DNA of 64,000 nt, from assembly GCA_001650895.1 (NCBI GenBank), contig LXYH01000045.1, positions 186,001 through 250,000 on the forward strand, written 5' to 3'. Below are positions 26,130-28,293 of the stretch, piece by piece. The stretch comes from Rhodobacteraceae bacterium EhC02. Its GTDB lineage: Bacteria > Pseudomonadota > Alphaproteobacteria > Rhodobacterales > Rhodobacteraceae. A model generated the notes under the pieces. The model made no database searches and was not told the DNA's origin. It worked only from the letters and a program-made list of their open reading frames with translations. The translations under genes and the position numbers were made by a program. How positions within the stretch are numbered: the first letter of the stretch is position 1; every line of letters begins with the position of its first letter.

Positions 26130-26327
26130 ATTTTCGAGACCAATCATTTCAACGGGTTGGCCGTGAGCGTTAACCAAATCTTAAGATTTCGGTATGCAAT
26201 ATGGCATTGCGTGTTGAAGCTTAAATCATTCGGAAAGCTTTCAGTGGGGACTGCTATCAGGGGAAGTTTGTTCCCGACTTGACAGTTGTGATGTAGAGTA
26301 AGCGCAAAGAAAAAAAGAACGAGCAGC

Positions 26328-27086
26328 ATGGCACAGAAATCTGAAATCGAATGGACTGATGCAACGTGGAATCCCGTTACGGGATGCACGAAAGTCGGTC
26401 CAGGTTGCGACCATTGCTATGCAGAACGATTTGCTGAGCGCTGGCGCGGAACCCAAGGGCATCCATACGAGCAGGGGTTCGATATGCGCCTCTGGCCCTC
26501 GCGCCTTGGCCAGCCCGCGCTCTGGAGAAAACCACGCATGATTTTCGTCAACTCGATGAGTGATCTGTTCCACAAGGACATTCCGCGTGAGTTTATTGAT
26601 CGAGTGTTCGACACAATGGAAGCGGCCCCTTGGCATGTCTATCAGGTGCTCACAAAGCGCTCGTCGCTAATGCGAAACTATGTGCGGCAGCGCTACGATG
26701 ACAATCGCGTGCCATCTCACATCTGGCTCGGCGTTTCGGTCGAGGACTCGGCACACAAAGGGCGGATTGAACATCTGCGTCAGATCAATTCGGAAGCGCG
26801 TTTCATCTCTTTTGAACCGCTCCTAGGCCCCATTGGTGAGATAGACCTAACTGGGATCGCCTGGGCGATTGTCGGGGGCGAGAGTGGGCCCGGTGCGCGA
26901 CCGATGGAAGCTGCATGGGCGACCGAATTGCGTATAGCTTGTGAGCGCTATGGTGTGGCTTTCTTCTTCAAGCAATGGGGAGGGGCGCGTCCGAAGTCCG
27001 GCGGTCGTTTACTCGAAGGCGAAGAATGGAACGGTTTCCCTTGGCGGATTGTGCCAAAAGCGATCATTAACGAGTTAAGGCAATAA
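26328..27086 (+). CDS. DUF5131 (phage Gp37/Gp68) family 'three-Cys-motif' protein
   Basis: The 252-residue protein has the family's hallmark cluster Cys20-x6-Cys27-x2-Cys30-Tyr (GC..GPGCDHCYA). Conserved blocks follow: IFVNSMSDLFH, VLTKR, LGVSVED, SFEPLLGP, GGESGPGARP and FFKQWGG. The cysteine spacing and the beta-strand/loop pattern resemble a radical-SAM or metal-binding TIM barrel, but no function is established to my knowledge. It lies 10 bases upstream of tcmP, its known genomic partner. Its base composition is lower in G+C than the flanking pyrimidine genes, which suggests transfer. Confidence 0.85.
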   Translation: MAQKSEIEWTDATWNPVTGCTKVGPGCDHCYAERFAERWRGTQGHPYEQGFDMRLWPSRLGQPALWRKPRMIFVNSMSDLFHKDIPREFIDRVFDTMEAAPWHVYQVLTKRSSLMRNYVRQRYDDNRVPSHIWLGVSVEDSAHKGRIEHLRQINSEARFISFEPLLGPIGEIDLTGIAWAIVGGESGPGARPMEAAWATELRIACERYGVAFFFKQWGGARPKSGGRLLEGEEWNGFPWRIVPKAIINELRQ

Positions 27087-27095
27087 AAGGCGATT

Positions 27096-28244
27096 ATGAA
27101 AACAAATTTAGATCTTTATAGAAAAAGAGAACAGTCTTTTATTAAGCATCAATTTCTGACAAGATATTTGCAAAAAGCTGCATATAAGACCCTTCAAGGG
27201 CGTTCGCCCATTTTCAATTTCGTAGATGCATTTGCTGGCCCTTGGCGAGTATCGGATGATGCTAAGTATTCCGACGCATCGTTTGATCAGGCAATAAACA
27301 CCTTAGAAGCTGTTCGCATCGACCTAGAACAGCGAGGTGTTAGTGGTTTGAAAATCAGGTTTTGCTTCTGTGAACAACGGCCAGAAGCAGTCACTCGCCT
27401 AAAAGAATATGCAAAAAATATGGATCGTTTCGAAATCCACGTATTCGAGGGCGCTTTTGAGAACAATCTCGATGCTATCGCCACCAAGCTAACTAGCGGG
27501 TTTACGTTTACCTTCATAGATCCAACCGGATGGAACATTCGAAATGAAGATGTGTTCCGCTTTTTGCGTGACCAAAAAGGTGAGTTTATGCTTAATTTCA
27601 TGTCGGACCATATCAATCGACATGCGGAGTATCCCGAAGTTGAAGCATCCTTTGGTCGCTTTTTGGCAGATGCAGAATGGGCAGATGATTTCGCACGCCT
27701 GCCTGCCGAATGGGGCAACGAGAAGAAAATGCTACATCTGATGAAAAGCGCCATGCGAACGAACAAGGTCGCAACCTACCTTCCTGACTTCTCGATCATG
27801 GTTCCAAGGCGGGAAAGAGTGAAGATGCGCCTGATCCTTGGGACGCATAGCGCGGCAGGTTTGGAGGTGTTTCGGGATGTTCAAGAGAAGGTCGAGAAGC
27901 AAGAGATTGAGATGCGACATAATCTCCGAACGGGTGAGAACCCGCAGGTTTTTCTGTTCTCCTCGGCTGATCTTGCGGAGATAGAACAAGACCGTAAAGG
28001 CGTTGGCTGCAAGGCCTATCGGTCACAAGCTGAGTCAATAATTGTCGAATACCTAGTTGGGCGAGAATACGCGTTTCCCGGATTATTGATCAACTTGGCG
28101 ATGGAAGCCGTTCCAATTCGTCGAACACAACTTAATAAACTTCTAATTGATATGAGAGATCGTGAAATTATCGGTTTCACTCTTCCAGAGAGGAAACGTG
28201 TCCCTCAAAGCGATACGAGGATTACGCTGACTCTAGCGATATAG
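27096..28244 (+). CDS. tcmP: three-Cys-motif partner protein TcmP
   Basis: The 382-residue protein matches TcmP. It shows SFIKHQFLTRYLQ near residue 14, a methyltransferase-like motif I FVDAFAGPW at 42-50, an acidic position after strand 2 (FCEQRPEA) and motif IV-like FIDPTGW at 140-146. The last 70 residues, with PIRRTQLNKLLIDMRDREI, look like a winged helix. A SAM-dependent methyltransferase or nucleic-acid-acting role is inference. AAAAGG lies 9 bases before the ATG. The gene is strikingly AT-rich: bases 27121-27180 contain only 18 G/C of 60, by eye count. Confidence 0.85.
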   Translation: MKTNLDLYRKREQSFIKHQFLTRYLQKAAYKTLQGRSPIFNFVDAFAGPWRVSDDAKYSDASFDQAINTLEAVRIDLEQRGVSGLKIRFCFCEQRPEAVTRLKEYAKNMDRFEIHVFEGAFENNLDAIATKLTSGFTFTFIDPTGWNIRNEDVFRFLRDQKGEFMLNFMSDHINRHAEYPEVEASFGRFLADAEWADDFARLPAEWGNEKKMLHLMKSAMRTNKVATYLPDFSIMVPRRERVKMRLILGTHSAAGLEVFRDVQEKVEKQEIEMRHNLRTGENPQVFLFSSADLAEIEQDRKGVGCKAYRSQAESIIVEYLVGREYAFPGLLINLAMEAVPIRRTQLNKLLIDMRDREIIGFTLPERKRVPQSDTRITLTLAI

Positions 28245-28256
28245 CCCCTCCCCCAA

Positions 28257-28293
28257 AACAAAAAACGCGGCCACCGGGAGGATGGTGACCGCG
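28257..28293 (-). terminator. Rho-independent terminator of preT-preA
   Basis: On the minus strand CGCGGTCACC and GGTGGCCGCG pair over 10 bp, with one G-U wobble in RNA, around an 8-base loop. TTTTTTGTTTT follows directly. It sits 23 bases after the preA stop and also separates preA from the convergent tcmP gene. Confidence 0.85.

What the first reader, a model, noticed from the sequence alone, without database searches (positions are those of the whole stretch)
26328..28244. DUF5131 three-Cys protein plus TcmP: an unexplained two-gene system of foreign composition
Seen: two co-directional genes 10 bases apart, AT-richer than everything around them. They lie in a gap between rutR and the preTA terminator. 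The first has Cys20-x6-Cys27-x2-Cys30-Tyr. The second has FVDAFAGPW and IDPTGW motifs like a SAM methyltransferase and a possible winged-helix tail. Known: the families are recorded as genomic partners, but I know of no established function. Inference: the pair may be a mobile cargo, perhaps a nucleic-acid modifying or anti-phage system in which a metal- or radical-SAM-like barrel works with a methyltransferase-like partner.
Basis: partly seen in the sequence, partly recalled or inferred. Interest (0 to 1): 0.8.

Follow-up and report, generated by a model that had tools for sequence, protein, structure and literature searches.

The report
Radical enzyme paired with swappable methyltransferase
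A small mobile two-gene cassette seems to pair an enzyme built like a spore DNA-repair lyase with an exchangeable methyltransferase built like an adenine-modifying RNA enzyme; it is often found near bacterial immune genes, and what it does has not been tested.

Summary
In detail: DUF5131 (26328-27086) and TcmP (27096-28244) form a low-G+C pair (49.3%; minimum of 579 overlapping stretches elsewhere in the window 58.6%) inserted between a rutR-like gene and preA. Two congeners carry other genes in that slot.

The DUF5131 model's only PDB matches with E<=0.001 are six spore photoproduct lyase (SPL) structures; its three cysteines are invariant in 81 of 81 relatives. The TcmP model's best match is RlmJ, an adenine-N6 rRNA methyltransferase; RlmJ's catalytic Lys and Asp align with residues invariant in 77 of 77 TcmPs.

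New here: of 54 TcmP places in the phylum of a Desulfarculaceae genome, 39 have DUF5131, 8 an SPL-like enzyme, 5 another radical-SAM protein (three of these 13 fused to TcmP), 2 none. So TcmP's partner is an SPL-type radical enzyme. TcmP is exchanged: DUF5131 proteins 91% alike carry TcmPs 14% alike.

Type I restriction genes lie near 17 of 115 distinct loci. PADLOC already lists the pair as a phage-defence candidate (PDC-M30). Best reading: a mobile nucleic-acid modification system, probably defensive; substrate, product and phenotype untested.

The parts
26328..27086 (+). DUF5131 protein (252 aa), SPL-type radical-SAM-like barrel
   Evidence: PF07505 319.7 bits; AF2 pLDDT 93.0, pTM 0.90; only PDB matches with E<=0.001 are six spore photoproduct lyase structures
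26385..26417 (+). Cys20-x6-Cys27-x2-Cys30, putative 4Fe-4S motif
   Evidence: sequence; invariant in 81 of 81 aligned relatives
26874..26888 (+). Gly183-Gly-Glu-Ser-Gly187, invariant motif at the end of a barrel strand
   Evidence: invariant in 81 of 81; strand 179-183 in the model
27096..28244 (+). TcmP (382 aa), RlmJ-like class I methyltransferase
   Evidence: TIGR04474 105.2 bits over cut-off 53; AF2 pLDDT 94.0, pTM 0.92; RlmJ 6qe5 is the best PDB match; hhalign to five RlmJ-like proteins E 2.3e-6
27129..27149 (+). motif X, EQSFIKH; Lys17 aligns with catalytic Lys18 of RlmJ
   Evidence: Lys17 invariant in 77 of 77
27219..27245 (+). motif I, FVDAFAGPW, putative SAM-binding loop
   Evidence: Asp44 and Gly48 invariant in 77 of 77
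27513..27533 (+). motif IV, FIDPTGW; Asp142 aligns with the motif IV Asp of RlmJ (Asp164 in E. coli)
   Evidence: Asp142 invariant in 77 of 77
28011..28229 (+). C-terminal winged-helix-like tail of TcmP (residues 306-378)
   Evidence: secondary structure of the model; weak Hop2 match E 0.58
26186..28242 (.). approximate inserted DNA between the end of the rutR-like gene and the preA terminator
   Evidence: homology to congeners L048 and L049 stops and resumes here

Best explanation
The pair is a mobile two-enzyme nucleic-acid modification system, most likely a defence module. TcmP is a SAM-dependent methyltransferase of the RlmJ type that recognises its target (DNA is favoured because of the tail and the neighbours) and acts on a base, probably adenine. 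DUF5131 is a radical-SAM enzyme of the spore-photoproduct-lyase type that makes a second, radical change at the same target. TcmP is the exchangeable, target-setting part, as HsdS is in type I restriction, and the radical enzyme is the conserved chemistry. The result is a chemically altered nucleic acid that hinders an invader without a nuclease of its own. Supported here by sequence and model: both folds, the cysteine and catalytic-type residues, near-obligate pairing, replacement of DUF5131 by SPL-like enzymes, fusions, TcmP exchange, defence-gene neighbours of a part of the pairs. Inferred: joint action on one target, DNA as substrate, adenine as base, TcmP as specificity part, and defence as purpose.
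For: DUF5131 fold = SPL; TcmP fold and catalytic-type residues = RlmJ. Pairing: 77 of 80 TcmP loci (the best 80 of 156 found) have DUF5131 within 800 bp; 19 of 19 genomes with TcmP over cut-off, the window's included, have DUF5131 within about 130 bp, against 33 of 299 with any DUF5131. Partner replaced by an SPL-like or other radical-SAM enzyme in 13 of 54 places, three of them fusions; the four SPL-like partners tested match only SPL in the PDB. TcmP exchange. Defence neighbours: type I R-M in 18 of 117 loci, 17 of 115 without two duplicate places; other R-M, DISARM and Cas3 models; prophage slot between integrase and repressor.
Against: No activity, substrate or phenotype is known. DUF5131 and SPL are not convincingly related by sequence: hhalign prob 0.7% against 2 SPL-like rows and 5.3%, E 0.0073, against 8. 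Foldseek TM-scores are modest (query-normalised 0.45-0.50 for DUF5131 vs SPL; 0.38/0.51 for TcmP vs RlmJ). TcmP motif IV is DPTGW (or D[PQ]xG), not the DPP[YF] of N6-adenine enzymes, so the methylated atom is unsure. RlmJ acts on RNA and showed no activity on single-stranded DNA (passage), so RNA is possible. Nearest neighbours outside the type I R-M loci are mixed, with many housekeeping-type families. DUF5131 occurs without a recognised TcmP in 40 of 80 viral loci and in 14 of 33 genomes no TcmP was over cut-off.
Confidence: 0.5

Rival explanations
1. Self-protection of mobile elements: the pair modifies the DNA of the plasmid, conjugative element or phage that carries it and so blocks host restriction (anti-restriction).
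For: Two Sulfitobacter plasmids carry a 79%-identical TcmP near DUF932 and RadC genes, one also with an SSB gene just upstream; P. aeruginosa plasmid typed conjugative; DUF5131 in 161 of 50,697 phage records, some near DNA methylase genes.
Against: Pairs adjacent to restriction systems, and copies such as the window's between chromosomal metabolic genes with no element genes beside it.
Confidence: 0.2
2. DNA repair: the radical enzyme reverses a lesion or adduct as SPL does, and TcmP assists, under damage control.
For: SPL-type fold; lexA directly upstream of SPL-tcmP in L143; a LexA-like ORF, by my reading of the sequence, also upstream in L275/L321.
Against: Patchy occurrence (TcmP in 34 of 394 family genomes, 23 over cut-off), exchange of one partner, and restriction neighbours are not what a repair pair needs.
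Confidence: 0.12
3. RNA modification: TcmP and the radical enzyme modify rRNA or tRNA, during infection or as a resistance or toxin device.
For: RlmJ and Trm1, among the fold matches, are RNA enzymes.
Against: Winged-helix-like tail, restriction neighbours; SPL is a DNA enzyme; a fixed RNA target would not call for exchange of TcmP.
Confidence: 0.1
4. Small-molecule defence like viperin: DUF5131 makes an altered nucleotide that TcmP methylates.
For: A radical-SAM precedent in phage defence (prokaryotic viperins, recalled, no call).
Against: No viperin among the titles of the 50 listed fold matches; all six with E<=0.001 are SPL. A winged-helix-like tail and TcmP exchange fit a polymer substrate better.
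Confidence: 0.05

Closest known systems
PADLOC candidate systems PDC-M30 / PDC-M41
   Same: Window proteins hit PDC-M30B and PDC-M41B (DUF5131; 5.8e-99, 9.3e-101) and PDC-M30A (TcmP; 8e-11)
   Different: Only a predicted candidate. Two papers of the listing name PDC-M30; the one passage seen (PMC10855318) gives a count, 32 P. aeruginosa strains of which 68.8% phage-resistant, and no mechanism; PMC11878078 was not read
Spore photoproduct lyase (radical-SAM DNA repair enzyme)
   Same: Fold of DUF5131, three cysteines followed by Tyr; SPL-like proteins replace DUF5131 beside TcmP
   Different: Cysteine spacing x6,x2 where the SPL-like partners have x3,x2; DUF5131 is 252 aa against about 340 in the structures; sequence-level match weak; TcmP partner
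RlmJ (23S rRNA A2030-N6 methyltransferase)
   Same: Fold, KH motif X, D.FAG-type motif I, motif IV Asp
   Different: DPTGW instead of DPP[YF]; extra C-terminal tail; radical-SAM partner; patchy and mobile
NCBIfam TIGR04471/TIGR04470 radical SAM mobile pair A/B
   Same: DUF5131 matches pair protein A (78.5 bits); the radical-SAM parts of L305, L307, L311, L297 and L317 match pair protein B weakly
   Different: All far below the cut-offs (355 and 410 bits); by the names, the partner there is a second radical-SAM protein
Type I restriction-modification (HsdRMS)
   Same: Neighbour in 17 of 115 distinct loci; exchangeable part beside a conserved one
   Different: No nuclease or translocase in the pair itself

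Membership tests
TcmP (TIGR04474) | score over curated cut-off | tested here: met
   105.2 bits, cut-off 53
DUF5131 (PF07505) | score over gathering cut-off | tested here: met
   319.7 bits, cut-off 28.9
Radical SAM superfamily | three-Cys cluster motif | tested here: met
   Cys20, 27, 30 invariant in 81 of 81; spacing x6,x2, not the usual x3,x2 (usual spacing recalled)
Radical SAM superfamily | radical-SAM TIM-type barrel | tested here: met
   six SPL structures are the only PDB matches with E<=0.001; 7bi7 (NifB by recall) at E 0.035
Radical SAM superfamily | binds 4Fe-4S and cleaves SAM | not testable with these tools
   needs spectroscopy and assay
Spore photoproduct lyase | sequence-level homology (TIGR04070/TIGR03886) | tested here: not met
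   no such hit for the window protein; hhalign prob 0.7% and 5.3%
RlmJ-type methyltransferase | fold and profile similarity | tested here: met
   (E 2.3e-6, prob 89)
RlmJ-type methyltransferase | catalytic Lys and Asp | tested here: met
   Lys17 and Asp142 align with Lys18 and the motif IV Asp, invariant in 77 of 77
RlmJ-type methyltransferase | motif IV DPP[YF] | tested here: not met
   DPTGW; most other classes D[PQ]xG
PDC-M30 defence candidate | both components adjacent | tested here: met
   9 bases apart
PDC-M30 defence candidate | protects against phage | not testable with these tools
   needs phage challenge
Restriction-modification system | nuclease component | tested here: not met
   no nuclease family in either protein; no further gene between rutR and preA evident in the ORF list

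The most novel reading that the evidence does not exclude
A class of immune systems in which a spore-photoproduct-lyase-type radical enzyme and an exchangeable adenine-type methyltransferase together write an unknown hypermodification into invading DNA. The radical partner can be DUF5131, a true SPL-like enzyme or a third radical-SAM type, and TcmP is traded like a specificity subunit.
Probability: 0.3. Interest if true: 0.92.

Novelty: new variant of a known kind. Interest (0 to 1): 0.72.

Why it matters
The families are widespread and listed as a phage-defence candidate without mechanism. Naming both folds, the replacement of DUF5131 by SPL-like enzymes, the fusions and the exchange of TcmP turn 'function unknown' into directly testable chemistry: SAM cleavage by one partner, SAM binding by the other, and a new modified nucleoside. 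If true, radical chemistry on nucleic acids would join methylation and cleavage as an immune tool.

Tried and rejected
Rejected: an ordinary chromosomal locus (DUF5131 absent from 6 of 7 genus genomes, other cargo in the slot of two); a restriction system (no nuclease); DUF5131 as a member of SPL by sequence. Led nowhere: PDB search by profile for DUF5131 (none at E<=1) and for TcmP (only a ribosomal S7 and a Hop2 match, E 0.0081 and 0.58); viral structure library for TcmP (poor matches); window TcmP against phage records (none at E<=1e-3); VIA-align not available; single-linkage classes of TcmP merged 127 of 130, so average linkage was used. The closest congener G006 (rutR 95% identical) gave no empty site: its contig ends 36 bases past that gene and preA was not found at E<=1e-100. 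Paper searches (terms for DUF5131, PF07505, TcmP, PDC-M30, radical SAM with phage or defence, SPL with defence) showed no mechanism for the pair in their listings; only that library, without preprints, was searched, one search listed 20 of 314 papers and one search listed 8 of 156. Of papers I saw: passages of PMC12445080, PMC12429752, PMC10855318 and PMC3814359; the rest as listings.

Dropped rows: one search left out L068, L071, L069, L067 and L162, and one search also L173 and L176, as copies of places already counted. One search showed two more near-copies that stayed in: L065/L166 and L104/L158; counts without them are given. Of 155 nearest neighbours, 150 from 88 loci went on, scanned as 75+75. 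The PADLOC and Pfam outputs list only the 25 commonest families and do not say which protein matched.

Full report
What is there. Two ORFs at 26328-27086 and 27096-28244 on the + strand, 9 bases apart, are DUF5131 (PF07505) and TcmP (TIGR04474). The pair has 49.3% G+C; 579 overlapping stretches of equal length elsewhere in the window have 58.6% or more. The left neighbour matches RutR models below their cut-offs, the right one is PreA over cut-off. Alignments with two congeners end at 26162-26185 and resume at 28243-28260, so about 2.06 kb is inserted. In those congeners the slot holds other genes: an XRE/IrrE-type protein with a 207-aa ORF, and a 299-aa ORF without a Pfam match. DUF5131 is in 1 of 7 genus genomes. 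TcmP is in 34 of 394 family genomes, 23 over cut-off; five of the weak hits that I read are RlmJ-like. This is mobile cargo in a small exchange slot.

DUF5131. The AF2 model is confident (pLDDT 93.0, pTM 0.90). In the PDB six chains match at E<=0.001, all spore photoproduct lyase. NCBIfam's 'radical SAM mobile pair protein A' matches at 78.5 bits, far below its cut-off of 355. Profile comparison with SPL-like proteins is weak (prob 0.7%; prob 5.3%, E 0.0073, though that alignment keeps the last two cysteines and the LTK segment in register).

TcmP. The model has pLDDT 94.0 and pTM 0.92. Its best PDB match is E. coli RlmJ with SAH; hhalign with five RlmJ-like proteins gives E 2.3e-6, prob 89, with Lys17 on RlmJ Lys18 and Asp142 on the motif IV Asp. 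RlmJ needs Tyr4, His6, Lys18 and Asp164 (PMC3814359, passages). Lys17, Tyr24, Asp44, Gly48 and Asp142 are invariant in 77 of 77 TcmPs. Motif IV is DPTGW here and FLDPYG-like or LDQxG in other classes, unlike DPP[YF].

Pairing, and its exceptions. Of 80 TcmP loci in named genomes (the best 80 of 156), 77 have DUF5131 within 800 bp, 76 of them co-directional. Of the three others, two begin within 150 bases of a contig end (L132, L153). The third, L143 of a Desulfarculaceae genome, has about 20 bases upstream a gene whose protein matches only spore photoproduct lyase in the PDB (2.9e-17), a lexA gene before it and a Cas3 gene after TcmP; no DUF5131 was found in that genome. In a 299-genome sample, 19 of 19 genomes with TcmP over cut-off, the window's own included, have DUF5131 adjacent, while 33 of 299 have DUF5131. 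A sample of 395 genomes of the phylum of the L143 genome gave 54 TcmP places over cut-off in 52 genomes. I examined all 54 (L265-L318): 39 with DUF5131, 8 with an SPL-like partner (L273, L275, L279, L286, L291, L308, L313, L315), 5 with a PA0069/mobile-pair-B-like radical-SAM protein (L297, L305, L307, L311, L317), 2 with none (L289 on a 3.4-kb contig; L312 at a contig end). Caveats: L291 is the L143 place, through which the phylum was chosen; L266 and L302 are two TcmPs around one DUF5131; the partners in L279 and L316 are cut by contig ends. The partners in L143, L273, L275 and L286 match only SPL in the PDB. In L308 (698 aa) TcmP and the SPL part are one open frame, and in L305 and L307 (589, 590 aa) TcmP and the other radical-SAM type are. 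L305, L307 and L311 have a Cx3Cx3C-like motif by eye. So the partner of TcmP is an SPL-type radical enzyme, of which DUF5131 is the commonest form.

Exchange of TcmP. Among 130 pairs (129 different), DUF5131 at 85% identity or more goes with TcmP identity under 25% in 58 of 311 comparisons; the window and L063 share 91% in DUF5131 and 14% in TcmP, and their DNA similarity stops 19 bases before the end of DUF5131. On the DUF5131 tree the nine TcmP classes need 34 changes (least possible 8; shuffled mean 44.7, 0 of 200 as low), and one clade for the window's class is rejected (p-AU 1.2e-59; quick tree, 56 of 126 inner branches drawn open). L057 and L104 align at 81.2% over 7,632 bp up to the end of hsdS and at 80.3% over 1,114 bp from DUF5131 outward, with no similarity in between, where TcmP lies. 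L057 and L094 share HsdR-HsdM at 95.3% over 5,112 bp and DUF5131 with its upstream part at 94.0% over 1,129 bp; there hsdS is diverged too (77% over 709 bp), so hsdS and tcmP may have been exchanged together. Some loci place two TcmPs around one DUF5131 (L129, L149; L302; P. aeruginosa plasmid L250, where DUF5131 is in two pieces).

Neighbours. In 18 of 117 loci type I restriction genes lie within 9 kb, HsdM in 14 (examples checked by Pfam; the L110 protein matched only the general N6_Mtase family). L104/L158 and L065/L166 proved near-copies, which leaves 17 of 115 and HsdM in 13. Of the 17, 12 have a restriction gene next to the pair, 4 have one listed ORF between (L057, L139, L142, L152), one is farther off (L110); in L101, L108 and L114 only HsdS is seen. 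Background: 65 HsdM rows by my count, fragments included, in 100 family genomes, 36 of which have any, so about 0.3 would be expected in 115 stretches of 18 kb (my arithmetic, about 390 Mb). The 17 are not independent: L057, L073, L094, L104, L157 and L159 share one gene order; by order and orientation I count at least five arrangements. Among 150 nearest neighbours from 88 other loci, PADLOC and Pfam list models of type III, IIG/MmeI, Eco57I and NotI restriction, DISARM, DarG, Cas3 (the L143 neighbour is one such) and PD-Lambda-4, mostly one protein each, with transposases and many housekeeping families. No matched control set was run for these. Phage Fairfaxidum carries DUF5131 and a convergent TcmP between integrase and immunity repressor. 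In S. meliloti a TcmP gene, SMa2243, is listed beside hna, SMa2245 (PMC12445080, passage).

Reading. Folds and partnership are well supported; joint action on DNA, exchange as specificity, and defence are inferred. The window copy itself has no defence gene beside it.

Noticed in passing
L048:5687-7383 (congener G002): The rutR-preA slot holds an XRE/IrrE (Peptidase_M78) gene and an overlapping 207-aa ORF without Pfam match, possibly a toxin-antitoxin-like or defence pair.
   Followed up: partly
L049:8365-9264 (congener G004): Same slot, 299-aa ORF, membrane-like by eye, no Pfam match.
   Followed up: partly
L305, L307, L308: Single open frames that join TcmP to radical-SAM enzymes of two different types.
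   Followed up: partly
L143:6237-11908: lexA, SPL-like gene, tcmP and cas3 in a row; possible damage-controlled operon.
   Followed up: partly
L168-L247: 40 of 80 viral DUF5131 loci have no recognised TcmP; 13 of these 40 DUF5131s exceed 300 aa, against 0 of the 40 paired ones. Partner or substrate unknown.
   Followed up: partly
L129, L149, L302, L250: Two TcmPs around one DUF5131 (in L250 in two pieces).
   Followed up: partly
L249:6518-10101: In one Sulfitobacter plasmid an IS1380-type transposase gene lies between DUF5131 and tcmP.
   Followed up: no
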